Shown: one piece after another, positions 1 through 26,880 of the stretch | Numbering within the stretch: the first letter of the stretch is position 1 | Layout: each line of letters opens with the position of its first letter | Origin: Caulobacter sp. BP25 | GTDB lineage: Bacteria; Pseudomonadota; Alphaproteobacteria; Caulobacterales; Caulobacteraceae | Length of the DNA stretch: 64,000 nucleotides | Assembly (NCBI RefSeq): GCF_002737755.1 | Contig: NZ_PEGH01000018.1 | Location: 248,001-312,000 of the forward strand | Direction: 5' to 3' | Program-made: the position numbers and the translations under genes | Notes under the pieces: model-generated | What the model saw: only the letters and a program-made list of their open reading frames with translations | The model's database searches: none | What the model was told of the DNA's origin: nothing

Positions 1-341
1 CCCTGATACATCAAGGGGCGGTCGGACTCCGGATGGGGCAGGTTGAACGCCTTGGACATCAGCGCGCCGTGGCTGGGGAAGGCCGAGGCGTCGAGCCACT
101 GATAGGATCGCGGCAGGGGCGCGCCCGCCTCGCTGGGGACGAAGGCGAAGGCCCCCACCGCGTGTCCCGTGTTCAGGTCCTCGTAGAGGGTCTGCAAGGG
201 GGGCAACGCGGCCTCCCAATGCTCCAGCGCGGCTTGCAGCGTGGGAAGCGACGCGTCGGCGGGCGCGGCCCAGCGCAAGTCGCGCGAGACGACAACGAGC
301 TGGCCGTCCCGCGTTCCGTTGTCGAGCGTCGCCAGCTTCAT
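1..341 (-). CDS. Fumarylacetoacetate hydrolase-family protein, 3' part beyond window
   Basis: Only the N-terminal 113 codons lie in the window; the gene runs off the left edge. The protein begins MKLATLDNGTRDGQLVVVSR, which matches the N-terminal domain of fumarylacetoacetase-like (FAH) proteins that precedes the catalytic barrel. FAH enzymes hydrolyse or hydrate 2,4-dioxo acids at the end of aromatic ring-cleavage pathways; the metal-binding residues are not visible here. The ATG overlaps the stop of the upstream cupin gene (ATGA), so it is the last visible gene of a translationally coupled operon with an extradiol dioxygenase and an alpha/beta hydrolase. A role in processing a ring-cleavage product is inferred from that context. 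Confidence 0.8.
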   Translation of the reverse strand, partial: MKLATLDNGTRDGQLVVVSRDLRWAAPADASLPTLQAALEHWEAALPPLQTLYEDLNTGHAVGAFAFVPSEAGAPLPRSYQWLDASAFPSHGALMSKAFNLPHPESDRPLMYQ

Positions 342-892
342 GCCGCGTCGAGCCCGTCTTCGTAGACGCCGTCGATCAGGATGAAGGCGATCCGGCAGGG
401 CTTGTCGCTTCGGTTGGCCCAGCCGTGGTTGGTGCCGCGCTGTACGACGATGTCGCCCGCGCGCACTGTGGTCTCGCCCACGTCCATGATCAGCACCAGC
501 TCGCCCTCGAGGACGATCCCGTAGTCGATGGTTTCGGTGCGGTGGAAGCTGGCGTGGCGATCGCTGGCCGCGCCCTTGAAGTTGTCGCTGGCGGCGATGT
601 TGTCAAAGACCGTGTCCAGCTTGTCGTCAGGCTTGTCCGGCGGGATGTCCAGGACGCGGATACGCGCGCCGCCTTTCGGCGGAGACAGCACCAGGCGCTC
701 TTCGGGCGGCTGTCCGCTGGCGCGGTCGATGCGGGCGGGGGTCTCCTGGGTGTTCCAAATCTCGTGGAACACCAGACCCTCCTGGCCAAGCTTGTCGTAG
801 ATGCGATCGGTCGAGCCGTCAGACTGGATGATGGCCAGACCTTCGGCGTTATGGCCGGTGACGACGCGGCGGACGGGGCGGACGGCGCTCAT
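338..892 (-). CDS. Cupin-domain protein
   Basis: A 184-residue protein. The C-terminal half is a cupin barrel: a glycine-rich strand pattern around IDYGIVLEGELVLIMDVGE followed by VRAGDIVVQRGTNHGWANRS, with the His of the second cupin motif. The start was placed at MSAVRPVRR because it gives an ATGA overlap with the upstream hydrolase stop; longer readings run into that gene. It sits between the alpha/beta hydrolase and the FAH-family gene of the putative meta-cleavage operon. Cupins in such operons can be ring-cleavage dioxygenases, isomerases or binding proteins, so the specific role is not known. It ends in an ATGA overlap with the FAH gene. Confidence 0.8.
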   Translation of the reverse strand: MSAVRPVRRVVTGHNAEGLAIIQSDGSTDRIYDKLGQEGLVFHEIWNTQETPARIDRASGQPPEERLVLSPPKGGARIRVLDIPPDKPDDKLDTVFDNIAASDNFKGAASDRHASFHRTETIDYGIVLEGELVLIMDVGETTVRAGDIVVQRGTNHGWANRSDKPCRIAFILIDGVYEDGLDAA

Positions 893-2042
893 GCGGTTTT
901 CTCTCCGAAGGTTTCCGCGATCCAGTCGGCGATGAAGTCGCGACCGAAGCTCATGTTGTCGACGCCCACGTGCTCGACGCCGCCCTCGCGGTCGGTGAAG
1001 ATCTTCAGCTCGCGCTTGGGACTGTTGATCAGCTGGTCGTAGGTCTGGTGGGCGTATTCCAGGCCGATCTGGCGGTCGCGTTCGCCGTGGGTCACCAGGA
1101 ACGGGACCCGGATGCGATCCAGGACGCCGTCCAGAGTCATGCCCTTGGACTTCTCCAGGAAGTCGTCCATGTCCTTGGCTCCAAACACCCAGTGGACGTG
1201 CGCCCAATAGTGGGGGACAGGGTTCTCGCCCTCGCGCGCCAGGCGCTTTTGCTGGACCTCGGCCCAGTTGTGGTTGGCGCCCCAGACCGCGCCCAGGGCG
1301 AAGCGCGGCTCGAACGCCACGGTGCGCGGCGTGTAGTAGCCGCCCAGCGAAATGCCGGCGAGGCCGATGCGCTTGGGATCGACGTCGGGCCGCGTCTCCA
1401 GCCAGTCGACGACCTTGGACGCCCAGCGCTCGCTCTCGTGGGTGGCGTGCAGGCCCGAGAGCCTCAGCGACTCGCCCGAGCCGGGCTGGTCGATGCAGAG
1501 GGTCGAAACGCCCCGCCGCAGCAGGGCCTGGGGCAGGCCGCTCCAGTAGAGCAGCTCCTTGCAGCTATCGAGGCCGTTCACATAGACCAGGATCGGCGTG
1601 GGGCCATCGCCCTCCGCCCGCGTCAGCAGGCCGGGGATCATGCCGCCTTCGTAGGGAATTTCGACCCGCTCGGCGTTCTCGCGCCCCAGGCGCATGGCCC
1701 GGTCGAACGCCTCGCGCGCCTTGGCGTAGGTGGCCTGGCGACCTGGGTGGCCGTGCCCCTGCATCCGCTCGGCGGTGATGTAGTAGAGGCTGGCGCGCTG
1801 CAGCTTCTTGCCCGCGCTGAAAGCGCGGCCCTTGGCCTCGTCCTCGGCGGCGAGGTCGACGAGCTTGTCGGCCATCGCCACCCAATGCTTGAGGAACTCG
1901 CCGGTGCCGGCGTCTTCGCCGCGAGCGGCCGCGTCGCGCAGCGGGCGGCACATCTCGTCGATTTCGCCGATCTGGGCGCCGCTCTCGATGGCGATGTCCA
2001 CCGACAGGTTCCAGACATAGTTCTTGGGAAGTACTCGAACAT
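889..2042 (-). CDS. Alpha/beta hydrolase (C-C hydrolase/esterase-like), apparent frameshift near the N-terminus
   Basis: The conserved part reads as about 370 residues from a GTG at 2001. It has an N-terminal helical cap of about 130 residues and then an alpha/beta-hydrolase core with the nucleophile elbow GISLGG, a DQPGSGES loop, an acid near VTHGERD and a late His in GGVEHVG. This architecture resembles the 2,6-dihydroxypseudooxynicotine hydrolase/FrsA-like group, which includes C-C bond hydrolases. A better start is the ATG at 2042, preceded by a GAGGA ribosome site just after the dioxygenase stop. Reading MFEYFP-KNYVWN across needs one extra C in the CCC run at 2026-2028, so a single base appears lost. 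In context it would cleave or hydrolyse a ring-fission product. Confidence 0.75.
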
Positions 2043-2052
2043 GGAAAGGTCC

Positions 2053-2936
2053 TCAGAGCGCCGGGGCGCGCCAGAGCAGGGCGTCGGGAATGGGGGCGGG
2101 CATTTCCTTGGGACCGCCAACGCCGTAGCCCCACTGATCCATGATCTCGAGAGACGGCTTGTGGACCGTCGCGACCCAGGTCTCGTCGTCGACCTCCACC
2201 AGTTCGGACGTGTACTCGACCACGAACTCGCCGGGCGAGATGAAGTAGGAGAAGGTGTTGTCGCCGGCGGTGTGGCGGCCAGGCCCCCAGACCACGTCGC
2301 GCTCGGCGCGTCGCAGTTTGGCCACGCCGCGCATCATCGCATCGACGCTGGGCACGTCGTAGGCCACGTGGTTCAGGGCCGGCGGGCCGGGCACGAACGC
2401 CAGGCGATGGTGCCAGCTGTTGCAGCGTAGGAAGCACATGAAGTCGCCGAGCCAGTCGGAGACGCGGAAGCCAAGAGCCGTACCGTCACCTTGGGCGTGT
2501 GGAACACGACGTGGCTGATCTTGATCGGCAGGTCCTCGTTGCGCGTCAGGGGGCGGCTGGGTCCGCGCTCGACCTCGGCCGAGATTTCCAGGGCGTGACC
2601 GTCCAGGTCGAAGACGCGGAAGCCGTAGCCCCCGCCGAGGCCTGTCAAAGGCGATGGTGCGGAGATGATCTTCGCGTCCATCGCGGTCAAATGAGCGTGC
2701 AGCGCATCGACGTCCGCGCGTGTCTCGGCCGCCCAGCCGACTAGCTCCACGGACCGCTCGGCGGCTTGCCGCAGGCGGACGGCGAACTTCTCGGGCGAGC
2801 CCGGCGCGGCCAGATAGACAAGGCCATCCTCGCTGGCCACCTCGATGAGGCCCCAGGTATCGACATAGAAGCGGCGCTCGGCCTCCAGGTCTGGAACGGC
2901 ATAGGCGATGAAGCGCACGTCGCTGACGCGGGCCAT
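2053..2936 (-). CDS. Type I extradiol ring-cleavage dioxygenase (VOC family), internal frameshift
   Basis: Two overlapping frames join into one protein of about 294 residues, the usual length of two-domain BphC-type extradiol dioxygenases. The N-terminal domain starts MARVSDVRFIAYAVPDLEAE. The C-terminal domain carries the expected iron ligands: His in KISHVVFHTP, His in LNHVAYDV and Glu in FVVEYTSE. The frames join if one G is added near 2487, giving HTPKVDGTALGFRVSDW; the length of 884 bases is one short of a whole number of codons. The start has a good AGGAG site. Such enzymes open catechol rings beside the hydroxyls with Fe(II) and O2. It follows the flavin monooxygenase and precedes the hydrolase, a typical meta-cleavage order. 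As sequenced it would be truncated. Confidence 0.8.
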
Positions 2937-2963
2937 GGGCGGACTCCTGACTAGGTCGCGGCC

Positions 2964-4079
2964 TCAGATGGGCTGCGCGGTGATTTCGAACATCTTGCGG
3001 GACTCGCCGGCGGTGTCGGCGGGCGGGCCCTTGCCGAGCTGGGCGTCGCCGATGGCGCGGGATCGCTCCACGATGTAGCGGCAGCGCTCAAAACGGCGGG
3101 CTTGATAAGCCTCGAAGGCCTGCTCCGGCGTGTCCGCCTTGGCGAGCTCGTCGGCCAGAACCAGGGAATCCTCGATGGCCATGCCGGCCCCCTGTCCAAG
3201 GTGTGGGGTGGTGGCATGGACGGCGTCGCCGAGCAGCACGATCCGCCCCCGGTGCCAGGGGCCGTCGACGAACAGGCATTCCAAGGGCTTGTAGACGACC
3301 TCGTCGTCGTCCGTGATCTTTGCCGTCAGCTCGCTAATCCTGGGCGGCGCGTTGCGCAAGCGTGCGCGCATCTCGGCCGCCAATCCTTCCCTCTCGAAGC
3401 GGCGGCCAGGCGTCTCGGGGGTCGTGACGAACATGTACATCCGGTCGGCCGACAGCGGCACCAGGCCGATCCCCATTGGCCCCTCGTAGGCGCAGAGGCA
3501 CGTGACGTCGTCCGGCCGGACGAAGTTGTATCGCCACACCGACTGTCCGGTCGGTTCGGGAATGGGCGCGTCCGGGATGATCGCGCGACGCGTGGCGGAG
3601 TAGAGCCCGTCAGCCCCGATCACCAGGTCGTAGCGGCCGGCCGAGCCGTCCGAAAAGGCGACATCCACGCCGGCTCCGTCATCTTTGAGGCTTTCGCTCG
3701 TGACGCCCAGGCGAATGTTCGCTCCCGAGGCCTTTGCGCGGTCGCCCAGCACCTTGTGCAAGGCGGGGCGGCCGATGCCGATATTGGCGGGATAGCCTTC
3801 CGCCAGTTTGGGCGCGGGTATCTTGGCGACCTGACGGCCGTCCGGAAGGTAGACCTCGACATGGTCGAAACCGAAGCCAGCTTCCAGGTAGTCGTCGAGG
3901 ATGCCCAGCTGGGCGACGGCCCGGACCACGTTGGACTGCTGGATGATGCCGACGCCATAGACGGACCAGGTCGGATCACGCTCGAGGAGATCGACCTCGA
4001 AACCCTTCCCCCGCAGCGCTATGGCCGCAGTCAGCCCGCCGATGCCGCCGCCAACAATGAGGATCTTGCCCTCTTTCAA
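2964..4079 (-). CDS. FAD-dependent aromatic monooxygenase
   Basis: A 371-residue class A flavoprotein hydroxylase. It has an N-terminal Rossmann motif (ILIVGGGIGGLTAAIAL), a central DG-type motif (VIGADGLYSATRR) and the FAD-ribityl motif LLGDAVHATTPHLGQGAGMAIED. The family (salicylate or 3-hydroxybenzoate 6-hydroxylase-like) uses NAD(P)H and O2 to add a hydroxyl to a phenolic ring. The start is TTG at 4079, chosen because GGGAGG lies just upstream and the Rossmann strand begins at once. It is the first gene of the operon whose next gene is an extradiol dioxygenase, so it probably makes the catechol that the dioxygenase cleaves. Two related inverted repeats lie upstream (4148-4194). The actual substrate cannot be read from the sequence. 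Confidence 0.85.
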   Translation of the reverse strand: MKEGKILIVGGGIGGLTAAIALRGKGFEVDLLERDPTWSVYGVGIIQQSNVVRAVAQLGILDDYLEAGFGFDHVEVYLPDGRQVAKIPAPKLAEGYPANIGIGRPALHKVLGDRAKASGANIRLGVTSESLKDDGAGVDVAFSDGSAGRYDLVIGADGLYSATRRAIIPDAPIPEPTGQSVWRYNFVRPDDVTCLCAYEGPMGIGLVPLSADRMYMFVTTPETPGRRFEREGLAAEMRARLRNAPPRISELTAKITDDDEVVYKPLECLFVDGPWHRGRIVLLGDAVHATTPHLGQGAGMAIEDSLVLADELAKADTPEQAFEAYQARRFERCRYIVERSRAIGDAQLGKGPPADTAGESRKMFEITAQPI

Positions 4080-4147
4080 TGTCGCCTCCCTAACCGCGGA
4101 ACTCGCCGCGAGGCCGTTGTTGCCGCGACACTAGGGATGGCGCGGGT

Positions 4148-4194
4148 ATCCGTGAAATGAATTGTCTTGATCGAGAGTCATCCATGAAATGGAT
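4148..4194. promoter_or_regulatory. Pair of similar inverted repeats upstream of the aromatic monooxygenase operon
   Basis: ATCCATGAAATGGAT at 4180-4194 is a perfect 6-3-6 inverted repeat. ATCCGTGAAATGAAT at 4148-4162 matches it at 13 of 15 positions. The starts are 32 bp apart and lie 70-115 bp upstream of the monooxygenase start. Two spaced copies of one palindrome suggest a transcription-factor operator; the regulator is not in view. Confidence 0.5.
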
Positions 4195-4652
4195 CAATCG
4201 TTCAGGATTGGGCGCACCAGTCTTCGCAGGGCCCAAGCCGTGACGGCCGCGCCCAGAACGCCGCCATAGACGGCCTTGAGCCCCAGCAGCGTCGCGAACG
4301 GCAAGGGGGGCGAAATCAGGCTGAGCCCGGCCGCCGCGCCGCCAACAGCGACGGTGACGACGATGGCGGCGACCAGCGCGCGCCTCCAGAGAGGCCCGGC
4401 CCCCACCGGAGCGAACAGCGGAAGCCCGCCGGCTCGCAACCTCTTGCGGACAATCAGGGACGGCACGGTGATCCCCATCAGGCTCACCATGAACGTCTGG
4501 GGGAGGAAGTCGGCGGCGAAGCCTCCCCCTCCCGTCGCTGGAATAACAGTGTCTCCAGAGAACACCGCCATTGCGAAGGCGACGCTGAGGGCGGCGTTGA
4601 TCGTCCCGCTCGTGGCCGCCTCGACCGTCAGGAAGCGTGTGTAGTCGCGCAT
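4194..4652 (-). CDS. Small integral membrane protein of unknown function
   Basis: A 152-residue hydrophobic protein with about four predicted membrane segments: roughly residues 18-36, 50-66, 90-112 and 120-142 by hydrophobicity. I do not recognise the family. The start ATG lies only 2 bases after the stop of the TonB-dependent receptor upstream, so the two are almost certainly co-transcribed. A helper role in transport or signalling for the receptor is possible but only inferred. Longer in-frame readings extend into the receptor gene and were rejected. Confidence 0.7.
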   Translation of the reverse strand: MRDYTRFLTVEAATSGTINAALSVAFAMAVFSGDTVIPATGGGGFAADFLPQTFMVSLMGITVPSLIVRKRLRAGGLPLFAPVGAGPLWRRALVAAIVVTVAVGGAAAGLSLISPPLPFATLLGLKAVYGGVLGAAVTAWALRRLVRPILND

Positions 4653-4654
4653 GG

Positions 4655-6910
4655 TCAGAAACTCGTCGAGACGCGGAGGCCATAGGTGCGTGGCGGGCGG
4701 ATCTGGTTGTAGATGACCCCCGCCTTCGCTGGGCTTTGCAGCGAGTTGGCGAAGACGACCTTGTCCTCGATGTTGTTGACATAGCCCGTCAGGGACCATC
4801 GTCCGCCGGGCGCCTCGTACGTCACGCGGGCGTTCGACATCGCGTAGGCGCCTTGTCGGCCTTGGTCGAGATAGTCGATGGACAGGTAGCGCGCGCTTTC
4901 CAGTCGCGCGTCGGCGCCAGCCACGATCTTGCCGCCGCTCGCCAGCGGGAAGGTGTGCTCCCACCCCAGGTTGACGATCCATTTGGGCGCGTTGACCAGG
5001 GGGCGGCCCGAGCAATCGACGTTGTATATTCTCGCCGCGCTGCTCGCTCCGGTCTGGGCCGTGAGCGTAGTCGCGCAGCCGATCGCGGGCGCCGGTCCCG
5101 TGGTCGAGTAGGCCTGGTAGCGGAGCTCGTCGTACCGGCCATGCAGATACTGCACGTTGGCCGACAGCAGATCGTGCGCCGTGGCCTGGAACATGGCCTC
5201 CAGTTCAGCGCCGTAGATCGTCGCCTTGCCCGCGTTCTCGGTCATGAAGAGCGGGGCGTAGATGGGACCCGCGGGCGTCGTGGCCGCCTGAACCGCGCCC
5301 AGGTGGGAGATCTGCTGGTCCTTGTAGTCCCAGTAGAAGGCCTCGACGTTCAACTGCAGGCGGTTCTCGAAGAAGCGGTTCTTCGAGCCGAGGGTGTAGG
5401 CGGTGAGTTCTTCAGGGCGTGACCAGTTCTGACCGCGCGCGGCGAACAGGACGCCGGACTTGTAGCCGGTCGAAATGGAGCCGTAGAGCAGCGAGTGCTC
5501 GCCAAGATCATAGTCCAGGCCGGCCTTCCAGGTCACCTTGTCGAAGTCGACGTCGCTGACGGCCGTGGTCGGCACCACCTGGATGATGGGGGTGAAGCTC
5601 GCGGTGAAACCCACGAAGGGGCGGCTTTCGGCGTAGCTGTTCTGGCGCTTGTTGTCCTTGGTCCAGCGCAGGCCGCCAGTCACTCGCAGGCGATCGGTCA
5701 GGGACCATGAAGTCTGGCCGAATACCGCCAGGCTCTGGGTCTTGAGCTTGGAGCGGATGTACGAGCCGTTGCTGCCCTGGTCGAACAGCTGGTCGGCATT
5801 GACGAACTCGGAGAAGCCGTAGGCGCCCACGACCCAGTTCAGACGGTCGGTCTTTCCCGCCAGACGGGCTTCAAGCGAGGCTTGTTCGCTCTTTTCGGTG
5901 ATGTCGATCAGGAAGCTGGAGGCGTAGCTGCGGAAGTCGGCGTCGACCTTTCGCCAGGCGGGGATCACCGTCAGCTGAGCAAAACCCAGATCGCCGTTGA
6001 TCGTCGACTGGAGGCCCAGGAACTTGTTGTTCTGATAGCCGTCGTCCTTGGCGATGATCTGCGGAACCGGCGCGGTGGGATTGCGGGCGACATAGGCGGC
6101 GATCACCTTGGGGTCGCTGGGTCCCAGGCGAGCGTCGCCGTTGACCAGCGGCATGATCGTACCGCCCGAGCCCATGCCGCCGACATCGGCGTAGTCGATT
6201 GCAAAGGTGGCGTCGAAGCCGCCTGGAGGCGCATAGCGCAGCTGCGCGCGGATCGCCTTGGTGTCCTCGTCGTCGTAGCCGTCACTGAAATAGCCATCGT
6301 GCTTGGCCAGCTGCCCGGCCACCCGCAGAGCGGCGTCCTGGCCCAGGCCAATATTGACCGCGCCGAACGCCTTGACCGTGTCGTAGTTGCCGTACTCGGC
6401 GGTGAACTGGCCGCTGTTTGAGCCCAGCTTCGGCTTGGCGGTGATCACATTGACCGCGCCGCCGGTGGCGTTGCGCCCATACAGCGTTCCTTGCGGTCCC
6501 TTGAGCACCTCGATGCGCTCGACGTCGTAGAAGAGACCGGCTGGCGCGGTGGGACGCGACAGATAAACCCCGTCCAGATTGAAGGCCACGCCCTGCTCGG
6601 CGAAGGCGTTGGCGCCGAACGTGCCGACCCCGCGCAGATAGATTTGGGTCAGCGACGCCGCCGGGGCGATCTGGATCACCGGGATGAGGCGGGTGATGTC
6701 CGTGGCTTGGGAGACGCTGGCCTTGGTAAGCGTGTCGCCCGCGACGGCGCTGACCGCTACGGCGGCCTTCTGCAGGTTCTCCTCGCGGCGCTGGGCGGTG
6801 ATGACGACTTCTTCGAGTGCGACGGACTGGCCGGTGCGGTCCTCCGCGAAGGCTGTCGATGCTGTGAGCCCGCACGCCCATGCGGCGCCGGCCAAAAGCC
6901 AAGCTTTCAT
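4655..6910 (-). CDS. TonB-dependent outer-membrane receptor
   Basis: A 751-residue receptor. A signal peptide of about 22 residues ends AFA, followed by a TonB-box-like segment LEEVVITAQRR, a plug domain with the typical VEVLKGPQGTLYGRNATGGA motif, a 22-strand barrel and a terminal aromatic residue (RVSTSF). The start at 6910 was chosen over upstream in-frame starts because it gives the signal peptide and has a strong GGGAGGA site. The family imports siderophores, vitamins, glycans or aromatic compounds using TonB energy. It is followed 2 bases later by a small membrane protein and then by the meta-cleavage operon on the same strand, so an aromatic substrate is a reasonable inference. Confidence 0.92.
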   Translation of the reverse strand: MKAWLLAGAAWACGLTASTAFAEDRTGQSVALEEVVITAQRREENLQKAAVAVSAVAGDTLTKASVSQATDITRLIPVIQIAPAASLTQIYLRGVGTFGANAFAEQGVAFNLDGVYLSRPTAPAGLFYDVERIEVLKGPQGTLYGRNATGGAVNVITAKPKLGSNSGQFTAEYGNYDTVKAFGAVNIGLGQDAALRVAGQLAKHDGYFSDGYDDEDTKAIRAQLRYAPPGGFDATFAIDYADVGGMGSGGTIMPLVNGDARLGPSDPKVIAAYVARNPTAPVPQIIAKDDGYQNNKFLGLQSTINGDLGFAQLTVIPAWRKVDADFRSYASSFLIDITEKSEQASLEARLAGKTDRLNWVVGAYGFSEFVNADQLFDQGSNGSYIRSKLKTQSLAVFGQTSWSLTDRLRVTGGLRWTKDNKRQNSYAESRPFVGFTASFTPIIQVVPTTAVSDVDFDKVTWKAGLDYDLGEHSLLYGSISTGYKSGVLFAARGQNWSRPEELTAYTLGSKNRFFENRLQLNVEAFYWDYKDQQISHLGAVQAATTPAGPIYAPLFMTENAGKATIYGAELEAMFQATAHDLLSANVQYLHGRYDELRYQAYSTTGPAPAIGCATTLTAQTGASSAARIYNVDCSGRPLVNAPKWIVNLGWEHTFPLASGGKIVAGADARLESARYLSIDYLDQGRQGAYAMSNARVTYEAPGGRWSLTGYVNNIEDKVVFANSLQSPAKAGVIYNQIRPPRTYGLRVSTSF

Positions 6911-6993
6911 GAAATCCTCCCTCGCGACGCTCTTGCCGGCGTCGCTTCGGGAGGATGGTCGTCCCAAGCATCGTATTTGAAAAATCTATTGTT

Positions 6994-7011
6994 TGGATGG
7001 GGAACCATCCA
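6994..7011. promoter_or_regulatory. Inverted repeat in the receptor promoter region
   Basis: TGGATGG-GGAA-CCATCCA is a perfect 7-4-7 inverted repeat about 85 bp upstream of the TonB-dependent receptor start and inside the 170-bp gap after pcaL. It is a candidate operator. Its half-sites resemble those at 4148-4194 but in the opposite arrangement. No gene is seen in this gap. Confidence 0.4.
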
Positions 7012-7080
7012 TTCTTGCGATGCTTTAGGCGGAAACCAATCAAGTTTAACCCGTGTCGCGCCGCAACGGATTGATCGGCG

Positions 7081-8262
7081 TCAAGGCTGTTGCAGTTCCG
7101 CGATGATCTCCGTCGCCTCGGTGAACGCGGTGTTGGCCGCAGGCACGCCGGCATAGATCGCCGTCTGCATCAGAACCTCTTTCAGCTCGTCCTGGGTGAA
7201 GCCGCCCTGCTCAAGGCCGGCCCGGACATGGAGCCGAAACTCCTCCCAACGCGCCAAGGCCGCGCAGATCGCCAGGACCAGCAGGCGACGGGTCTTGTGG
7301 TCCAGTCCAGGACGCCCCCAGATCTCTTCCCAGGCGTAGCGGGTGATCATGGCCTGATAGTCGGCCGTGAAAGGGGTGCGCTTGGCCAGGGAGCGGTCCA
7401 CCCAGGCGTCGCCCAGCACGGCGCGCCGGGTCTTGAGGCCGGCCTCGAACAGGGTCTCCTTGGCCGCCTTCGCGGTCGGGTCGGCGCGTAGGAAGCCTCG
7501 GACCACGCCTGCGAAGGCGGCCGGCGTCTCGATCGGGGGGAGGTGGGCGCTGTCGAGCAAGGCGGTAGCCGCGCCCGGAACAGCCTCGGCGATCCGCGCG
7601 CCGTGCGCCTCGAAGGGGGTGGAGATGTCCTTGGTCCCGCCGATCACCAGGGTGGGCGTCGAGATCGCCGACAGGCGGTCCAGAAGCGTCATGTCCCGGA
7701 TGGCGGCGCCGCACGCGGCGTAGCCCTCGGCGCTGGTCGTCCGCAGTCCGGCCCGCACCGTTTGGACCACCTCAGGATGAAGCCGGCGGAAATCTTCCGA
7801 GAAGAAGCGTCCTAGGACGGTCTCGATGATCGCGTCCATGCCTTGGGCGCGCACCAGTTCGATGCGCTGCGCCCAGGCTGCGGAGTCCATCGCCGCCGAG
7901 GTGCAAGCCAGAACGAGGCCGTCCACGCGATCGGGCGCCGCCAGGGCCATCGTCATCGCGATCATGCCGCCCAGGGACACGCCGCAGACCGCCGCCTGAC
8001 CGATCCCGACCGCGTCCATCACCGCGAAGACGTCCTGGGCCAGCAGGGGGAGGCTGTAGTCCCCTGTCGGCGCATCGGAGGCCCCATGACCGCGCGTGTC
8101 GATCCGGAGCAGGCGGAAGTCTTCCAGCAGCAGAGGCGCGGCGCGGTCAAAGAGGCCAAGGTCACAGCCGATCGAGTTTAGCAGAACCAGGGTCGGCCGA
8201 TCTTCCGCGCCTTCGAGCCGGAAGTAGAGGCGCGCGCCGTCGCCGGCTTTAGCGAAGGCCAT
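7081..8262 (-). CDS. pcaL: 3-oxoadipate enol-lactonase / 4-carboxymuconolactone decarboxylase fusion
   Basis: A 393-residue two-domain protein. Residues 1 to about 255 form an alpha/beta hydrolase (nucleophile elbow CGVSLGG, acid near IGGTKDIS, His in DSAHLPP) equivalent to PcaD. Residues about 265-393 form a carboxymuconolactone decarboxylase domain with HVRAGLEQGGFTQDELKEVL, equivalent to PcaC. The fusion catalyses two consecutive protocatechuate-branch steps: decarboxylation of 4-carboxymuconolactone and hydrolysis of the enol-lactone to 3-oxoadipate. The start overlaps pcaB by 14 bases. It is the last gene of the pobA-pca operon. Separate pcaC and pcaD genes are not seen in the window, consistent with the fusion doing both jobs. 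Confidence 0.93.
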   Translation of the reverse strand: MAFAKAGDGARLYFRLEGAEDRPTLVLLNSIGCDLGLFDRAAPLLLEDFRLLRIDTRGHGASDAPTGDYSLPLLAQDVFAVMDAVGIGQAAVCGVSLGGMIAMTMALAAPDRVDGLVLACTSAAMDSAAWAQRIELVRAQGMDAIIETVLGRFFSEDFRRLHPEVVQTVRAGLRTTSAEGYAACGAAIRDMTLLDRLSAISTPTLVIGGTKDISTPFEAHGARIAEAVPGAATALLDSAHLPPIETPAAFAGVVRGFLRADPTAKAAKETLFEAGLKTRRAVLGDAWVDRSLAKRTPFTADYQAMITRYAWEEIWGRPGLDHKTRRLLVLAICAALARWEEFRLHVRAGLEQGGFTQDELKEVLMQTAIYAGVPAANTAFTEATEIIAELQQP

Positions 8263-9412
8263 GGGGCGAGCTCCTATAGTGATCCAGAATACGGCGCGCG
8301 ATCGTTTCGGACTCGCCGGTGTCAAGGCCGAGGTTCGCGGTCGCCAGATTGTCCGCCATACGGTCTGCGCGGACCTCCAGCCCCTCGATGGCCGGCGCCA
8401 TGGCCGCCAGCGCGCCGTGGGTCAGTGCGAACAGCTCGGCCAGGACCGGCCCCTCCGCCTGCCAACCGCCCAGGTCGCGTTCGTGGGCCTGTGGCAGGGC
8501 GGAAACTAGGGTCGCCGCCAGATGCGGAGCGCGCAGCGCCGCCGACAAGGCTGTCTGGCAGGCCGTGGGATTTCGCTTGTGGGCCATGGCCGATGATCCG
8601 CCGCGTCCGGTCACGCGCGGCTCGAAGGCCTCGGCCACTTCGGCCTGTGCCAGCAGTGAAAGGTCGCGGGCGATCTTGCCGATCGCGCCAACCAGGATCG
8701 CCAAGGCGCTGGCCAGCCCCGCCAGGGCTTCGCGGCGAGCGTGCCAGGGCGCCAGGGCCGGCGCGAGGCCCAGAATCTCCGCTAACCGGTCCGACACCGC
8801 CAGTCCTTGGCCATCCAGGTCCGCGAGCGATCCGGTCGCGCCGCCCAGCTGGATGCGCAAGGCGCGTTCGGCCTCCGCTTCGCTTCGCGCGAGGGCGTCG
8901 TCGATCCCCGCCAGCCACTGAGCCGTCTTCAGGCCGAACGTGATGGGAAGGGCCGGCTGGAGCAGCGTGCGCCCCAGCATTGGCGTGGCCAGATGTGCTT
9001 CGGTCAAGGTCGCCAAGGCTTGGCGGAGACGATGCCCCTCATGTCGGATCAGAGCCATGCCGGCCTTGGCCTGGAGAACCAGGACAGTGTCCGCCAGGTC
9101 CTGGCTGGTCGCGCCCTTGTGCAGTTCCGCCGCGATCGCGGCGTCGGGGATGCGCGCCCGCAGCAGCGCCACCAGCGGAATGGCCAGAGTGCCCGCGTGG
9201 GCCGCAGCCGCAGCCAGGGGCTCGATCTCGGGCGGCTCGGCGCAGGCCGCTTCGATAGCCTTGGCGCTGACGGGGTCCAGAAGGCCAAGATCGGCCCGCG
9301 CTCGCGCCAGGCCCGCCTCGAAGCGCAGGGCCGCGCGCAGCAAGGCCGCGTCGCCGAACGCCTCGAGCATCGCGTCGGTCGAGGCGGCGTGGGCGCGGAT
9401 CAGTGAGGGCAC
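8249..9412 (-). CDS. pcaB: 3-carboxy-cis,cis-muconate cycloisomerase
   Basis: A 387-residue member of the fumarase/argininosuccinate lyase superfamily. The signature loop GRGGSSAMAHKRNPTACQ is present at the expected position, as are the helical segments GATSQDLADT and LQPALPITFGLKTAQW. It converts 3-carboxymuconate to 4-carboxymuconolactone in the protocatechuate ortho pathway. GTG at 9412 is taken as the start because a GGAG site lies 5-8 bases upstream, between it and the pcaG stop; upstream in-frame starts lie inside pcaG. The length is slightly shorter than some homologues (about 400-450). It is located between pcaG and pcaL, as expected for the operon. Confidence 0.92.
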   Translation of the reverse strand: MPSLIRAHAASTDAMLEAFGDAALLRAALRFEAGLARARADLGLLDPVSAKAIEAACAEPPEIEPLAAAAAHAGTLAIPLVALLRARIPDAAIAAELHKGATSQDLADTVLVLQAKAGMALIRHEGHRLRQALATLTEAHLATPMLGRTLLQPALPITFGLKTAQWLAGIDDALARSEAEAERALRIQLGGATGSLADLDGQGLAVSDRLAEILGLAPALAPWHARREALAGLASALAILVGAIGKIARDLSLLAQAEVAEAFEPRVTGRGGSSAMAHKRNPTACQTALSAALRAPHLAATLVSALPQAHERDLGGWQAEGPVLAELFALTHGALAAMAPAIEGLEVRADRMADNLATANLGLDTGESETIARRILDHYRSSPHGLR

Positions 9413-9429
9413 GTCTTGCTCCGGATCTA

Positions 9430-10077
9430 TCAGACGTCGAAGAAGACGGTTTCCCGCTCGCCTTGCAAGACGATGTCGAAGCGCCAAGCTCCATCCTGTT
9501 TCCGCGCCATCAGGGTGCCGCGACGCTCAGGCGGGACGAGCGCCAGGATCGGATCAGACGCATTGGCCGGATCACCCTCGAAATAGACGCGCGTGACGAG
9601 GCGCTTGAGGAGGCCTCGGCCGAAGACCCCGACCGCGATATGCGGAGCGTGGCCTTCGCCGATGGAGCCGGGGAGGACGGTCCGGAAGCGATAGGTCCCG
9701 TCCTCGCCGGTCGAGGCGCGGCCAAAGCCTACGAAGCCGGTGTTACCCTCGGCGTAGTGGCCGGCCGCGTCGGCCTGCCATATCTCGATCATGGCGTCGG
9801 GGATGATCTGGCCTTCGGCGTCGACCACCACGCCTTCGAGTACGATGGTCTCGCCCGCGATCTCGCCCTTGGGGCTAGGGGAGGCCAGCAGATAGTGCTC
9901 GGGCGGCATTAGCTCGGGCCGAGCGCCGATGTCGCTGGTCCCGACCAGGTCAGCGCCGCCCTTCCAGGGCAGGCCGTAGTGGAAGAAGGGGCCAACTGTC
10001 TGCCAGGGGGTCTGGCCGAAGATCGCCGGGTCCTGGCTGTCTTGGCGCGGGGCGGGGCGGGCTTGCTCGGGGGTCAT
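9430..10077 (-). CDS. pcaG: Protocatechuate 3,4-dioxygenase alpha subunit
   Basis: A 215-residue intradiol dioxygenase subunit. The N-terminus has the alpha-subunit pattern TPWQTVGPFFHYGLPWKGG, then a beta-sandwich with VVVDAEGQIIPDAMIEIWQADAAGHY and the C-terminal TRVYFEGDPANASDPIL. Like other alpha subunits it lacks the full set of iron ligands and pairs with PcaH. The complex cleaves protocatechuate between the hydroxyls to 3-carboxymuconate using Fe(III) and O2. The start overlaps the pcaH stop as ATGA; longer in-frame readings extend into pcaH and were rejected. Confidence 0.95.
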   Translation of the reverse strand: MTPEQARPAPRQDSQDPAIFGQTPWQTVGPFFHYGLPWKGGADLVGTSDIGARPELMPPEHYLLASPSPKGEIAGETIVLEGVVVDAEGQIIPDAMIEIWQADAAGHYAEGNTGFVGFGRASTGEDGTYRFRTVLPGSIGEGHAPHIAVGVFGRGLLKRLVTRVYFEGDPANASDPILALVPPERRGTLMARKQDGAWRFDIVLQGERETVFFDV

Positions 10078-10787
10078 TGGCCGTTCTCGAAAGGCGTGGC
10101 GTCTTTGCCCCGCAGGACGATGTCGAACACGTAGCCCAGGGCCCAGTTGGGCTCGGTGGTCTCGATGTCGAAGCGCGAGACCATCCGCTGGCGGTAGGGC
10201 ATGGGCACAGCGTTGGCGATCGGATCGATCTCGATCAACGGATCGTCCGGGAAGTACATCTGGGTCACCAGCCGCGTGGCGAAGGCCGGGCCCAGCAGCG
10301 ACAGGTGGATGTGCGAGGGGCGCCAGGCGTTGTGGTGGTTGCGCCAGGGATAGGCGCCGGGGCGCACCGAGATAAACCGGTAGCGGCCCTCCGCATCGGT
10401 GATCACGCGGCCCGCGCCCGTGAAGTTGGGATCGAGCGGCGCGTCCCACTGGTCCTTCTTGTGGATGTAGCGGCCAGCGGCGTTAGCCTGCCAGACCTCG
10501 ACCACGGTGTGAGGCACAGGACGACCGTCGTCGTCCAAAACCCGGCCCGAGACCACAATCCGCTGGCCCAACGGCTCGCCATTGTGCTGGCTCGTGAGGT
10601 CTGCCATCGACTCGCCCATCAGCCGCGACCAGGCGTTCGCCGGGCCGGTGGTCTCGGTCAGGGTGTGCGGGATCTTGACCAGCGGTTCGCGGGGCGAGCG
10701 CGAGACGGTCGAGCCGTAGTCCGGATAGAGCGAAGGCGGTTGGCCTGCGTCCTCGCGGCGGTAGGAACCAGGCAGGATCAGGCTCAT
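10074..10787 (-). CDS. pcaH: Protocatechuate 3,4-dioxygenase beta subunit
   Basis: A 237-residue catalytic subunit. The four Fe(III) ligands are visible: Tyr107 in AGRYIHKKDQW, Tyr146 in GAYPWRN, and His159 and His161 in RPSHIHLSLLG. An N-terminal PcaH-specific segment (SLYPDYGSTVSRSP) precedes the beta-sandwich. It opens the protocatechuate ring in the ortho manner. A GGAG site lies directly after the pcaF stop and 9 bases separate the genes. It overlaps pcaG by ATGA, giving coupled synthesis of the two subunits. Confidence 0.96.
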   Translation of the reverse strand: MSLILPGSYRREDAGQPPSLYPDYGSTVSRSPREPLVKIPHTLTETTGPANAWSRLMGESMADLTSQHNGEPLGQRIVVSGRVLDDDGRPVPHTVVEVWQANAAGRYIHKKDQWDAPLDPNFTGAGRVITDAEGRYRFISVRPGAYPWRNHHNAWRPSHIHLSLLGPAFATRLVTQMYFPDDPLIEIDPIANAVPMPYRQRMVSRFDIETTEPNWALGYVFDIVLRGKDATPFENGQ

Positions 10788-10796
10788 GAGGGTCTC

Positions 10797-11992
<1,196 letters not shown>

Positions 11993-11996
<4 letters not shown>

Positions 11997-12651
11997 GCGA
12001 AAGCTCCCGCGTCGAAATCGGCCTCGGTCTTGGCCTTGATCTCGTCGAGGGTGACCCCGGGAGCGAGCTCGATCAACGTCAGGCCCTTCTCCCCTTGGCG
12101 CCTTTCCGATCCAACTCGAAGACGCACAGATCGGTGATGACCATGTCGACGCAGGCCGCGCCGGTTAGGGGCAGGGCGCAGCGCTTGAGGACCTTGCTCT
12201 GACCGGCCTTGTTGGCGTGGTCCATGACGACGATGACGCGCTTGACGCCGGCGACCAGGTCCATGGCGCCGCCCATGCCCTTCACCATCTTGCCGGGGAT
12301 CGTCCAGTTGGCGATGTCGCCGTTCTGGGCCACCTCCATCGCGCCCAGCACCGTCAGGTCGATGTGGCCGCCGCGGATCATGGCGAAGCTCTGGGCGCTG
12401 TCGAAGAAGCTGGAGGTCGGCAGCTTGGTGATTGTCTGCTTGCCGGCGTTGATCAGGTCCGGGTCGGCCTCGCCCTCGTAGGGGAAGGGGCCCATGCCCA
12501 GCATGCCGTTCTCGCTCTGTAGCGTGACGTGGACGCCTTCTGGAATGTGGTTGGCGACCAGGGTCGGGATGCCGATGCCGAGGTTGACGTAAAAGCCGTC
12601 CTTCAGCTCGCGGGCGGCGCGAGCCGCCATCTCGTCACGGGTCCAGGCCAT
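11993..12651 (-). CDS. pcaJ: 3-oxoadipate CoA-transferase subunit B, frameshifted near the C-terminus
   Basis: The uninterrupted frame gives 190 residues with the beta-subunit SENG signature ([14 protein letters not shown]) and the catalytic Glu in it. It then stops early after [10 protein letters not shown]. Adding one G to the run at 12091-12094 restores [20 protein letters not shown] and a stop at 11993 that overlaps the pcaF start as ATGA. The total of 659 bases is one short of whole codons. The restored length, about 219 residues, is normal for PcaJ. With PcaI it transfers CoA from succinyl-CoA to 3-oxoadipate. The lost tail is short and the pathway is otherwise intact, so a sequencing error is plausible. 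Confidence 0.9.
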
Positions 12652-13361
12652 TACGCTTGCTCCTTCGGACGCGTGGTCAGCTTCTCGATGCGCTTTTCGT
12701 TGATCGTGCTCAGAATGATGCGGTCGACATAGATGCCGGGCGTATGGATCGCGTTGGCGTCCAGTTCGCCGGCCTCGACGATCTCCTCGACCTCGACGAT
12801 CGTGACCTTGCCTGCGGTGGCCATGACGGGATTGAAGTTGCGGGCCGTCATCCGGAACATCAGGTTGCCTTCTGGATCCGCCTTCCAGGCCTTGATGATG
12901 GCGAGGTCGGCGCGCAACCAGGTTTCGCGCACGTACGGCTCACCCTCGAAGGTTTCGACCGGCTTGCCCTCAGCCACGACCGTGCCCACGCCGGTCTTTG
13001 TGTAGAAAGCCGGGATGCCCGCGCCGCCGGCCCGAATGCGCTCGGCCAGGGTGCCCTGCGGGTTCAGCTCAAGCTCCAGCTCGCCCGAGAGGTAGAGCTG
13101 CTCAAACAACTTGTTCTCGCCGACATAGGACGAGATCATCTTCCGGATCTGGCCGTTGTTGAGCAGCATCCACAGGCCAAAGCCGTCGGCGCCGCAGTTG
13201 TTGCTGATCACGGTCAGGTCCTTGACCCCCGTGTCTTTGAGCGCAGGGATTAGGGTCTCGGGATTGCCCGACAGGCCAAAGCCTCCGGACATCAGGGTCA
13301 TGCCGTCGAAGGCAACGCCCTCCAGCGCCGCCGCGGCGCTTTCGTAGATCTTGCTTTTCAT
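12651..13361 (-). CDS. pcaI: 3-oxoadipate CoA-transferase subunit A
   Basis: A 236-residue alpha subunit of a family I CoA-transferase. It has the glycine-rich [18 protein letters not shown], the [10 protein letters not shown] segment and [15 protein letters not shown], all typical of PcaI/ScoA. It forms the heteromer with PcaJ. The stop shares its last base with the pcaJ start codon, so the two subunits are translationally coupled. An 18-base gap with a GGAG site separates it from pobA upstream. Confidence 0.94.
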
Positions 13362-13379
13362 GGTGAGCTCCGGGGCCTT

Positions 13380-14597
<1,218 letters not shown>

Positions 14598-15628: not shown

Positions 15629-15656
15629 AGCATACAAATCGCCTGGCGTACAAATG
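15629..15656 (+). promoter_or_regulatory. Candidate MarR operator upstream of the ferulate operon
   Basis: AGCATACAAATCG (15629-15641) is repeated exactly at 29991-30003, in front of the MarR-family gene. A second similar half, GCGTACAAAT, follows at 15646-15655. The motif lies 45-70 bp upstream of the vdh start and could overlap a -10 element paired with TTGCGC at 15610-15615. The exact 13-base match at two promoters suggests one regulator for both. Confidence 0.5.
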
Positions 15657-15698
15657 ATCGCTCCAACAGCGGCGCGCCAGCGCAAGGGAAGGAACACC

Positions 15699-17111
15699 AT
15701 GAGCTCGACCCAGGCCGTCTTTGATCGCCGCGATCCTGTTACGGGCGAGGTGGCGACCACCGCGATCGCTATGAGCCCGGACCAAGCCCGCGCCGCTGCG
15801 GAAGCAGCCCAGGCGGCCTTGCCGGCATGGAGCGGGCTGGGGCCGAACGCCCGTCGAGCCCTTATGTCGAAGGCCGCCGAGGCGCTGGAGGCGCGAGCTG
15901 ACGCTTTCGTCGCGGCGATGATGGGCGAGATCGGCGCGACCGAGGGGTGGGCCCGGTTCAACCTGATGCTAGCCGCCTCGATGGTTCGCGAGGCCGCCGC
16001 CCTGACCACTCAGGTGAGTGGCGAGGTCATCCCTTCTGACAAGCCTGGTTGCCTGGCCATGGCCGTGCGCGAGCCGGTCGGCGTGATCCTGGGCATTGCG
16101 CCTTGGAACGCGCCGATCATCTTGGGCGTCCGGGCGGTCGCCACGCCTTTGGCCTGCGGCAACACCGTGGTGTTGAAGGCCTCCGAGAGCTGCCCGCGCA
16201 CCCATGAACTGATCGCCGAAGCCTTTGCCGCTGCGGGCCTGCCGGCGGGCGCGCTGTCGATCGTCACCAACGCGCCGGCCGACGCGGCCGAGGTGGTGGG
16301 AGCGCTGATCGACCATCCGGCCGTGCGGCGGATCAACTTCACCGGCTCGACCGCCGTGGGCAAGATCATCGCCAAGCGCGCGGCCGAGCACCTCAAGCCG
16401 GTGTTGCTGGAACTGGGGGGCAAGGCGCCGCTGATCGTGCTGGACGACGCCGATCTCGATGAGGCCGTGAAGGCCGCCGCCTTCGGCGCCTTCATGAACC
16501 AGGGTCAGATCTGCATGTCGACCGAGCGGATCATCGTCGTCGACGCCGTGGCCGACGCCTTTGTCGAAAAGTTCAGCGCCAAGGCCGCCAGCCTCGCGGT
16601 CGGCGATCCGCGCGAGGGCAAGACGCCGCTGGGCGCCGTTGTCGACCTGAAGACCGTCGCGCATGTCCAGGCCTTGGTGGCTGAGGCCGTGGAGGCTGGC
16701 GCCGTTCGAGTCTCTGGCGGGGACGCCGAGGGCGTTCTGATGCCGGCCACCGTCGTCGATAAGGTCACGCCCGCCATGCGTCTCTTCCGCGAGGAGAGCT
16801 TTGGGCCGGTCGTTGGCGTCATCCGGGCCCGCGACGAGGACCACGCCGTCGCCCTGGCAAACGACACCGAGTACGGCCTGTCGGCGTCTGTTTTCACCCG
16901 CGACATCGCCCGGGGCCTGAAGGTCGCGCGACGTATCCAGTCAGGCATCTGCCACATCAACGGCCCCACCGTGCACGACGAGGCTCAGATGCCGTTCGGC
17001 GGCGTCAAGGCCTCGGGCTACGGCCGTTTCGGCGGCAAGGCCGGGATCGACGCCTTCACCGAGTTGCGCTGGATCACCGTCGAGACCCAGCCCGGCCATT
17101 TCCCGATCTGA
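15699..17111 (+). CDS. vdh: Vanillin-type aromatic aldehyde dehydrogenase
   Basis: A 470-residue NAD(P)-dependent aldehyde dehydrogenase. Visible motifs are PWNAPIILGVRAVATPLACGN, the LELGGKAPLIVLDDAD loop with the catalytic Glu, the nucleophile Cys in NQGQICMSTERI, and EESFGPVVGV. These features match vanillin/salicylaldehyde dehydrogenases. The start at 15699 follows an AAGGGAAGGA ribosome site; an earlier in-frame start at 15654 was rejected. In this operon it would oxidise vanillin (or 4-hydroxybenzaldehyde) released by the next gene's product to vanillate (or 4-hydroxybenzoate), which feed VanAB and PobA respectively. Confidence 0.9.
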   Translation: MSSTQAVFDRRDPVTGEVATTAIAMSPDQARAAAEAAQAALPAWSGLGPNARRALMSKAAEALEARADAFVAAMMGEIGATEGWARFNLMLAASMVREAAALTTQVSGEVIPSDKPGCLAMAVREPVGVILGIAPWNAPIILGVRAVATPLACGNTVVLKASESCPRTHELIAEAFAAAGLPAGALSIVTNAPADAAEVVGALIDHPAVRRINFTGSTAVGKIIAKRAAEHLKPVLLELGGKAPLIVLDDADLDEAVKAAAFGAFMNQGQICMSTERIIVVDAVADAFVEKFSAKAASLAVGDPREGKTPLGAVVDLKTVAHVQALVAEAVEAGAVRVSGGDAEGVLMPATVVDKVTPAMRLFREESFGPVVGVIRARDEDHAVALANDTEYGLSASVFTRDIARGLKVARRIQSGICHINGPTVHDEAQMPFGGVKASGYGRFGGKAGIDAFTELRWITVETQPGHFPI

Positions 17112-17164
17112 CGCCCGATCGCCTTGCGCTGATCGCGTCCCGCCCAGACCCACAAGGATTACCC

Positions 17165-17992: not shown

Positions 17993-18031
17993 GACGAGGG
18001 TGGGAGGAAACGACGAGGGGAGGAGGACCAG

Positions 18032-19537: not shown

Positions 19538-19538
19538 A

Positions 19539-20477: not shown

Positions 20478-20577
20478 GTTTTAGGGTCCCGGCGTTCTCG
20501 AAAACGACGTTGGGCTTCGCATCCGTGAAAGTCGCCTTCGCGCCTAGCCAAGTCTGATCGCGCCGCCCGTGCTCCTG

Positions 20578-20591
20578 TGTCGACAACGACA
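20578..20591. promoter_or_regulatory. Short inverted repeat before the aromatic-cluster receptor
   Basis: TGTCG-ACAA-CGACA is a perfect 5-4-5 inverted repeat 21-34 bases upstream of the receptor start, just before its ribosome site. The 134-bp gap otherwise shows no gene. It could be an operator for the AraC gene upstream, but short repeats of this type also arise by chance. Confidence 0.3.
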
Positions 20592-20611
20592 TAAAAAGGG
20601 AGGTTCGGGCC

Positions 20612-23185: not shown

Positions 23186-23263
23186 CCAAAGGCGGGGCGA
23201 GGCGTCCGCCGCCCGCCCCATTTCGCCCTTCGGGGCCTGTTGATTGAGGAGCGTGAGATCGCG

Positions 23264-24760: not shown

Positions 24761-24824
24761 AGCCTTTTGTTTTGACGCATCTTCCGACGACGGGCCTTTA
24801 TCCACGGCGTCGGAAGATGCTCTA
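24758..24824. repeat. Intergenic inverted-repeat element with CTAGAGC/GCTCTAG ends
   Basis: Perfect 13-bp arms GCATCTTCCGACG (24777-24789) and CGTCGGAAGATGC (24808-24820) enclose an 18-base loop. Outer TAGAGC (24758-24763) and GCTCTA (24819-24824) add a second layer of symmetry. It fills most of the 77-bp gap between the two dehydrogenases and could act as a stem-loop in the transcript. A related CTAGAG-bounded element lies at 29888-29943, suggesting a dispersed genomic repeat family. Confidence 0.7.
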
Positions 24825-24837
24825 GGAGCGCTTGCGC

Positions 24838-25938: not shown

Positions 25939-25999
25939 TGGGCCCGGCGGCTCAGGAGCTAAGCCCGTTACGTTCCCAGCGTGTCCCCGAGGGGCCCCT

Positions 26000-26854: not shown

Positions 26855-26880
26855 CCGATATCGCGCGGGACTTTCGGCGT

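What the first reader, a model, noticed from the sequence alone, without database searches (positions are those of the whole stretch)
1..6910. Uncharacterised meta-cleavage operon linked to its own TonB-dependent receptor
Seen: flavin hydroxylase, two-domain extradiol dioxygenase with His/His/Glu ligands, an FrsA/C-C-hydrolase-like protein, a cupin and an FAH-family protein, coupled by short gaps or ATGA overlaps, behind a TBDR and a four-helix membrane protein on the same strand. Known: these families together open catechol rings beside the hydroxyls. Inference: the TBDR imports the aromatic (perhaps a lignin-derived dimer or plant phenolic) that this operon degrades, separately from the ortho route next door. 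I recognise no described pathway with this exact set.
Basis: partly seen in the sequence, partly recalled or inferred. Interest (0 to 1): 0.78.

Follow-up and report, generated by a model that had tools for sequence, protein, structure and literature searches.

The report
Broken flavonoid-degradation operon with receptor
A Caulobacter genome carries genes that look built to import plant flavonoids and open one of their rings, with control sequences like those of rhizobial nodulation genes, but the ring-opening gene is damaged in this strain.

Summary
It is best read as a TonB-receptor variant of the described fde/ifc flavonoid A-ring cleavage route. The FAD hydroxylase is 44% identical to a protein that a source names FdeE (IfcA and FdeE share 36%); the hydrolase is 61% identical to one in a plasmid operon with fde gene order. 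The dioxygenase belongs to another extradiol subfamily (28%) and no Rieske partner was found. Clues to flavonoids: C-glycoside deglycosidase pairs lie in 20 of 80 related loci; the regulator beyond the window edge resembles rhizobial NodD1 (about 40%); the 3' half of a published nod-box pattern occurs once in the 4.29-Mb genome at up to 3 mismatches (it has 1), before the receptor. In 20 of 23 other genomes with a match, the receptor's best relative lies in the same operon. In this strain the dioxygenase is split by a net 19-bp loss and the hydrolase start codon is out of frame. Five of 75 genus genomes hold this dioxygenase class; it is broken in three. The neighbouring pob/pca genes may take the B ring. 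Nothing supports lignin dimers. Nothing was assayed.

The parts
6975..7021 (-). Nod-box-like element before the receptor gene: two ATC-N9-GAT modules; 3' half at 6975-6998
   Evidence: 1 mismatch to the 3' half of a published nod-box pattern; the only site in the own genome at up to 3 mismatches
4655..6910 (-). TonB-dependent receptor, 751 aa, inferred flavonoid importer
   Evidence: Pfam plug and barrel; best relative lies in the operon locus in 20 of 23 other genomes with a match
4194..4652 (-). Small protein, 152 aa, function unknown
   Evidence: No Pfam or NCBIfam match; relatives in 5 of 80 loci and in L025, L029, L033, L134
4148..4194 (-). Second, weaker nod-box-like element before the hydroxylase
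   Evidence: 5 mismatches in the 3' half, reached in 0 of 2000 shuffles of the gap; one ATC-N9-GAT module (read)
2964..4079 (-). FAD monooxygenase, FdeE-like, 371 aa
   Evidence: 43.8% identity over 370 aa to P0240, named FdeE by a source; NCBIfam PRK06847 over cut-off
2053..2936 (-). Type I extradiol dioxygenase, disrupted
   Evidence: Split frames, net 19 bp shorter than three congener copies; subfamily of PDB 3b59
889..2041 (-). FrsA-like C-C hydrolase with its conserved ATG out of frame
   Evidence: 60.6% to the B. anthina plasmid protein; related to 2,6-dihydroxypseudooxynicotine hydrolase 2jbw
338..892 (-). Cupin, IfcD/FdeH-like
   Evidence: Pfam Cupin_2; 44.9% to the B. anthina cupin
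1..341 (-). FAH-family hydrolase, first part; continues outside the window, then a NodD-like LysR gene on the same strand
   Evidence: L005:11355-12341 and L005:10382-11278; 55.7% to the B. anthina FAH
7081..14555 (-). Neighbouring pcaDC, pcaB, pcaG, pcaH, pcaF, pcaJ, pcaI, pobA: inferred B-ring route, not part of the operon
   Evidence: NCBIfam models over their cut-offs for all eight proteins; the link to the operon is inference

Best explanation
This is a flavonoid catabolic module of the fde/ifc kind in a Caulobacter, with its own outer-membrane receptor. A NodD-like LysR regulator senses a flavonoid and acts at nod-box-like elements before the receptor and hydroxylase genes. The receptor brings the flavonoid through the outer membrane. 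The FAD enzyme adds an ortho hydroxyl to the A ring, the extradiol dioxygenase opens that ring, and the C-C hydrolase, cupin and FAH-family enzyme cut the chain into central metabolites, releasing a B-ring fragment for the pob/pca genes next door. In this strain the dioxygenase is broken and the hydrolase start is out of frame, so the module is probably inactive or stops after hydroxylation. Shown: gene set, homologies, conserved linkage, promoter elements, frame breaks. Inferred: ligand, transport, order of reactions, B-ring route, loss of function.
For: Homologies to fde-type genes and to the published ifc set. C-glycoside deglycosidase alpha and beta homologues in 20 of 80 loci (families); beta subunits in 35 of 47 host genomes and 0 of 14 controls, 17 of 75 within 10 kb of the dioxygenase by coordinates against 0.33 expected. 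Regulator close to NodD1. Nod-box-like element: one site in the own genome; 57 sites in 92 loci against 0 for the reversed pattern, 45 of 57 upstream of an operon gene. Receptor linkage 20 of 23. Frame breaks.
Against: No activity was tested. The dioxygenase is only 28% identical to the fde-type one, and no Rieske partner was found. The 11 Caulobacteraceae genomes searched hold no deglycosidase beta subunit. A similar LysR with a similar element precedes a different meta-cleavage operon in Cupriavidus. 53 of 92 loci have no site at up to 4 mismatches; five fde-type and two receptor-variant plasmid loci have none. The FdeE name on P0240 is a source's label, and Herbaspirillum proteins themselves were not compared.
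Confidence: 0.72

Rival explanations
1. The operon degrades another phenolic with a resorcinol or phloroglucinol ring (xanthone, stilbene, anthraquinone, chromone) by the same chemistry.
For: C-glycoside deglycosidases also act on a xanthonoid and an anthraquinone. The dioxygenase differs from the fde-type one. The NodD-like regulator and its element also occur with another meta-cleavage operon.
Against: Hydroxylase, hydrolase, FAH and cupin all match the fde-type set, and NodD and FdeR, the nearest regulators with known ligands, answer to flavonoids.
Confidence: 0.18
2. The frame breaks are sequencing or assembly errors and the operon works in this strain.
For: The receptor, hydroxylase, cupin, FAH and regulator frames are open. 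Dioxygenase differences from the G064 copy still fall mostly at third positions, 22/15/91. Only one assembly was seen.
Against: A net 19-bp deficit with clustered substitutions beside it is not a usual sequencing error. A second break lies in the next gene. Two congeners carry other breaks in the same genes. Completeness is 99.95%.
Confidence: 0.12
3. The receptor is a siderophore or general receptor that merely lies beside the operon.
For: Its best NCBIfam model is the siderophore-receptor subfamily, below cut-off. TonB receptors are numerous in these genomes. 32 of 80 loci show no receptor at 30% identity or more, and some loci are cut by contig ends.
Against: Its best relative sits in the operon locus in 20 of 23 other genomes with a match, and the nod-box-like element lies directly before it.
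Confidence: 0.1
4. One reading: a lignin-derived dimer is the substrate.
For: A TonB receptor for a lignin-derived compound (DdvT) is known in Sphingobium SYK-6 (search listing only), and vanillate-demethylase-like genes lie at 26881-28934.
Against: The enzymes match the flavonoid set. No dedicated search for lignin-dimer genes was made.
Confidence: 0.03

Closest known systems
fde operon of Herbaspirillum seropedicae SmR1 (naringenin), compared through fde-type plasmid operons and P0240
   Same: FAD hydroxylase, C-C hydrolase, cupin, FAH protein and NodD-like regulator are homologous
   Different: Dioxygenase of another subfamily (28%), no Rieske partner, transporter, MFS, cyclase or epimerase in the window operon; a TonB receptor instead
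ifc cluster of Variovorax sp. V35 (isoflavones)
   Same: Same kinds of enzymes: FAD monooxygenase, VOC dioxygenase, 2,6-dihydroxypseudooxynicotine-hydrolase-like protein, cupins
   Different: Sequences could not be fetched; IfcB is 65.8% identical to FdeC, so it probably belongs to the other dioxygenase subfamily (inference)
NodD and the nod box of rhizobia
   Same: Regulator about 40% identical to NodD1; 3' half of the nod-box pattern with 1 mismatch, two ATC-N9-GAT modules
   Different: No nodulation gene was found beside it; spacer between modules one base longer than in the published pattern; ligand untested
C-glycoside deglycosidases (DgpB/C, DfgA/B, CarB/C)
   Same: Homologous pairs lie in 20 of 80 related loci and beside a related set on a Deinococcus plasmid
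   Different: Beta subunit not found in the window's genome
DdvT, TonB receptor for a lignin-derived compound in Sphingobium SYK-6 (search listing only)
   Same: A catabolism-linked TonB receptor for an aromatic
   Different: Substrate and sequence relation not tested
PDB 3b59, glyoxalase/dioxygenase of unnamed function
   Same: Same dioxygenase subfamily as the congener copies (E 2e-157)
   Different: No function is given in the listing

Membership tests
fde/ifc flavonoid A-ring cleavage operon | FAD monooxygenase of the FdeE kind | tested here: met
   43.8% over 370 aa to a protein named FdeE by a source; IfcA and FdeE share 36.3%
fde/ifc flavonoid A-ring cleavage operon | VOC dioxygenase orthologous to FdeC/IfcB | tested here: not met
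   Congener copy is 28% identical to the VOC protein of the fde-type B. anthina operon and nearer to PDB 3b59; FdeC itself was not compared
fde/ifc flavonoid A-ring cleavage operon | Rieske partner FdeD | tested here: not met
   No match above 60 bits in L005, and none counted in the 80 loci
fde/ifc flavonoid A-ring cleavage operon | C-C hydrolase, cupin and FAH-family protein | tested here: met
   60.6%, 44.9% and 55.7% identity to the fde-type plasmid proteins
fde/ifc flavonoid A-ring cleavage operon | NodD-like LysR regulator beside the operon | tested here: met
fde/ifc flavonoid A-ring cleavage operon | Activity on flavonoids | not testable with these tools
   Needs an assay
NodD/nod-box regulation | Regulator of the NodD group | tested here: inconclusive
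   About 40% to NodD1, but the tree leaves the deeper order of regulators open
NodD/nod-box regulation | 47-bp nod box with ATC-N9-GAT modules | tested here: inconclusive
   3' half: 1 mismatch. 5' module: one mismatch and a spacer of 8 instead of 7 when read by eye against the pattern
NodD/nod-box regulation | Flavonoid-dependent activation | not testable with these tools
   Needs a reporter test
Functional type I extradiol dioxygenase | One open frame with His/His/Glu ligands | tested here: not met
   Met in the congener G082; not met in the window, where the ligands lie in two frames
TonB receptor for an aromatic substrate | Receptor fold and conserved linkage to the catabolic genes | tested here: met
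   Pfam plug and barrel; 20 of 23 other genomes with a match
TonB receptor for an aromatic substrate | Transport of the aromatic | not testable with these tools
   Needs mutants and uptake tests

The most novel reading that the evidence does not exclude
Non-symbiotic Caulobacterales and Sphingomonadales run flavonoid uptake and degradation through a true NodD/nod-box circuit, and the rhizobial switch that starts nodulation was recruited from such a catabolic regulon. The window strain is a snapshot of that regulon being lost.
Probability: 0.3. Interest if true: 0.8.

Novelty: new variant of a known kind. Interest (0 to 1): 0.55.

Why it matters
It offers a substrate class for a gene set found in hundreds of loci (532 confirmed dioxygenase loci), whose dioxygenase subfamily has a solved structure without a named function (3b59). 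It proposes TonB-dependent import of flavonoids. It links nod-box-like promoters to catabolism outside rhizobia, which makes the origin of the NodD switch testable. The deglycosidase pairs beside many of these operons suggest complete routes for C-glycosyl flavonoids. The repeated damage in one genus shows the trait being lost.

Tried and rejected
Rejected: that the set belongs to no described pathway (fde/ifc found); plain membership of fde (dioxygenase subfamily and Rieske partner fail); the nod-box element alone as proof of flavonoids (Cupriavidus case); a lignin dimer as substrate (nothing found for it, but no dedicated search was made).

Led nowhere: the Herbaspirillum Fde and Variovorax Ifc sequences could not be fetched, because the one genome-contig scan kept the best 80 of 532 confirmed loci; P0240, with only a source's name, stood in for FdeE. 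The Variovorax paradoxus plasmid hit is an unrelated hydrolase neighbourhood. PMC10628242 held none of the six terms sought. Palindromes before the receptor were not shared across the six upstream stretches compared. pobA adjacency is weak (4 of 80). No structure was predicted.
Full report
WHAT IS THERE. The window is G000:C18:248001-312000 of a 4.29-Mb genome in 20 contigs. Its genus is Caulobacter by two links: congener G064 has a contig of the same number and length as one of Caulobacter endophyticus 774, and the G082 dioxygenase is identical to a protein named from Caulobacter sp. UNC279MFTsu5.1. On the minus strand lie a TonB receptor, a small protein, an FAD monooxygenase, a two-domain extradiol dioxygenase, an FrsA-like hydrolase, a cupin and an FAH-family protein. 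The last runs out of the window and is followed on the same strand by a LysR regulator.

FRAME BREAKS. The dioxygenase is split between two frames. Against three congener copies it lacks a net 19 bp between the first metal ligand and the other two, with several substitutions beside the gap. The hydrolase's conserved ATG is out of frame with its body. Elsewhere the dioxygenase still looks constrained: 22, 15 and 91 differences at codon positions 1, 2 and 3 against the G064 copy, so the break looks recent. The whole-genome searches found no other copy of this dioxygenase (at 1e-30) and no second hydrolase of this kind (two weak fragments only). Of 75 genomes in the genus, 8 match the dioxygenase profile at 1e-30; 5 belong to this class, G082 and G199 intact and G000, G064 and G086 broken, while G138, G230 and G154 match only at about 1e-40. 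In the 20 kb taken around them, G064 and G086 keep only hydroxylase, dioxygenase and a truncated hydrolase of the operon.

DISTRIBUTION. The hydrolase search matched 15 of 199 family genomes; 10 of these, the window's own included, are at 66% identity or more. In these 80, matches were counted for hydrolase in 78, hydroxylase in 69, FAH in 68, regulator in 59, cyclase in 51, receptor at 30% identity or more in 48, cupin in 37, epimerase in 24, MFS in 22, and Rieske in none. Some loci are cut by contig ends, and the sample favours the closest relatives.

RELATION TO KNOWN PATHWAYS. In Variovorax V35, IfcA hydroxylates daidzein at C8. IfcB gave a peak with the spectrum of the next intermediate, although substrate remained. 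IfcD cupins act later. The cluster also holds a hydrolase like 2,6-dihydroxypseudooxynicotine hydrolase, whose loss did not affect daidzein degradation (PMC11069340, passages and sections 17 and 18 seen). In Herbaspirillum, FdeE with the Rieske protein FdeD hydroxylates naringenin and the A ring is then cleaved (PMC8552027, passages; PMC11303751, passages). A Burkholderia anthina plasmid has LysR, transporter, hydrolase, EthD, VOC, Rieske, FAD oxidoreductase, MFS, cyclase, cupin, FAH and epimerase genes in a row. I call it fde-type because the order fits what these papers say of FdeA, C, D and E, and because its FAD enzyme is 67% identical to P0240, which a source names 'naringenin degradation protein FdeE'. 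The window's proteins match it at 60.6% (hydrolase), 55.7% (FAH), 44.9% (cupin), 41.0% (FAD enzyme) and 37.2% (regulator); the congener's dioxygenase only at 28.2%. That dioxygenase belongs with PDB 3b59, a solved protein listed without a specific function; its ligand residues align with BphC. Fde-type plasmid loci of Azospirillum, Diaphorobacter, Paraburkholderia and Alloyangia carry the other VOC and a Rieske protein. So there are two variants that differ in dioxygenase and Rieske partner. The receptor goes mostly with the window's variant, but not strictly: the Caulobacteraceae locus L028 has the other VOC, a Rieske protein and a receptor.

SUBSTRATE CLUES. A Deinococcus aetherius plasmid has a related hydrolase (65%) and hydroxylase (49%) near a TIM-barrel protein and a C-glycoside deglycosidase beta subunit that match solved deglycosidases. 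Both subunits have homologues in 20 of the 80 loci. A family search found beta subunits in 35 of 47 host genomes chosen from these loci, in 0 of 11 Caulobacteraceae and in 0 of 14 controls. By coordinates, 17 of 75 beta-subunit genes lie within 10 kb of the dioxygenase (0.33 expected) and 33 within 25 kb (0.83 expected); contig identity was not checked by name there. The substrates tested for such enzymes were C6- and C8-glycosylated flavonoids, a xanthonoid and an anthraquinone (PMC8563793, passages), so this clue favours but does not prove flavonoids. Novosphingobium is reported to use naringenin as sole carbon source (PMC6064089, passages); no gene cluster of this kind appears in the passages I saw.

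REGULATION. Among plasmid records, the regulator's best named matches are NodD1 of rhizobia at 39-41%; sphingomonad and other unnamed LysR genes rank above or among them, and the collection is rich in symbiotic plasmids. FdeR is cited as NodD-like and flavonoid-dependent (PMC10799723, passages). The nod-box pattern in PMC4782375 (passages; see also PMC5596368, passages) was shortened to its 3' half. At up to 3 mismatches it occurs once in the window's genome, with 1 mismatch, before the receptor gene. In eight Caulobacteraceae genomes it gives 8 sites in 5 genomes, 6 of them by position before operon receptor or hydroxylase genes, and none for the reversed pattern. In 92 loci there are 57 sites at up to 4 mismatches, in 39 loci by my count, against 0 reversed; 45 of the 57 lie upstream of an operon gene within 400 bp. 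L134's site lies before its hydroxylase but was scored as unplaced because that locus was not in the gene table. A looser form lies upstream of the regulator in 27 of 65 loci, the receptor in 20 of 61 and the hydroxylase in 19 of 78, against 0.5-1.2% of shuffles; it is also found before the dioxygenase in 5 of 86 and FAH in 3 of 75, and in 0 of 89 before the hydrolase. Two rhizobial nod regions gave sites with 1 and 3 mismatches. Five fde-type plasmid loci (L116, L117, L136-L138) and two plasmid loci of the receptor variant (L119, L141) gave none. A Cupriavidus regulator of a different meta-cleavage operon has a site too. So the element follows the regulator group rather than flavonoids alone. 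The regulator tree leaves the deeper order open.

RECEPTOR. I searched the receptor in 26 genomes; 15 of them were chosen because their locus showed a receptor. Apart from the window's own, 23 had a match at 1e-60, and in 20 the best match, among 21 to 94 first-look candidates per genome, lies in the operon locus by coordinates. Exceptions are G131, G019 and G086; G064 and G018 had no match. This supports a dedicated receptor, but transport is not shown. TonB uptake of a lignin-derived aromatic is described for DdvT (PMC6874591, search listing only).

MECHANISM. Family chemistry suggests flavin hydroxylation of the A ring, extradiol opening, C-C hydrolysis and FAH-type cleavage to small acids, with the B-ring part going to 4-hydroxybenzoate or protocatechuate and the adjoining pob/pca genes, whose identity NCBIfam confirms. 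The B-ring link is inference; pobA lies in only 4 of 80 loci. With the dioxygenase broken, the strain might still hydroxylate and build up an unstable catechol, or do nothing.

NOVELTY. Searches, which cover open-licence PMC papers only, listed no paper that I recognised as describing a receptor-linked flavonoid operon in Caulobacter or sphingomonads; most listed papers were not opened. The primary papers on fde and FdeR (Marin 2013, 2016; Wassem 2017) were seen only as cited by others. I rate this a new variant of a known kind.

Noticed in passing
window 32803-35057 (-): A second TonB receptor looks broken: the plug ORF (33861-35057) and the barrel ORF (32803-33762) are separate, next to a PepSY_TM protein gene (30637-32265).
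   Followed up: no
window 35508-45024 (+): LacI regulator, TonB receptor (40% identical to the operon receptor), two GH3 glycoside hydrolases and a carboxylesterase in a row: possibly a plant-glucoside locus.
   Followed up: partly
window 15654-28934: Two aldehyde dehydrogenases, a TonB receptor and a vanillate-demethylase-like pair: the stretch looks like an aromatic-catabolism region.
   Followed up: no
L026, L031, L059: Decayed operon remnants in two congeners still carry the nod-box-like half with 1 mismatch before the hydroxylase.
   Followed up: partly
L135:3025-15195: Deinococcus aetherius plasmid set that joins C-glycoside deglycosidase genes with hydroxylase, VOC, cyclase, FAH and hydrolase genes.
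   Followed up: partly
L144:1-9005: Cupriavidus plasmid operon of a different meta-cleavage kind with a NodD-like LysR and a nod-box-like site.
   Followed up: no
L093, L096, L099, near 7126-7194: Paired nod-box-like sites near deglycosidase genes rather than before a placed operon gene.
   Followed up: no
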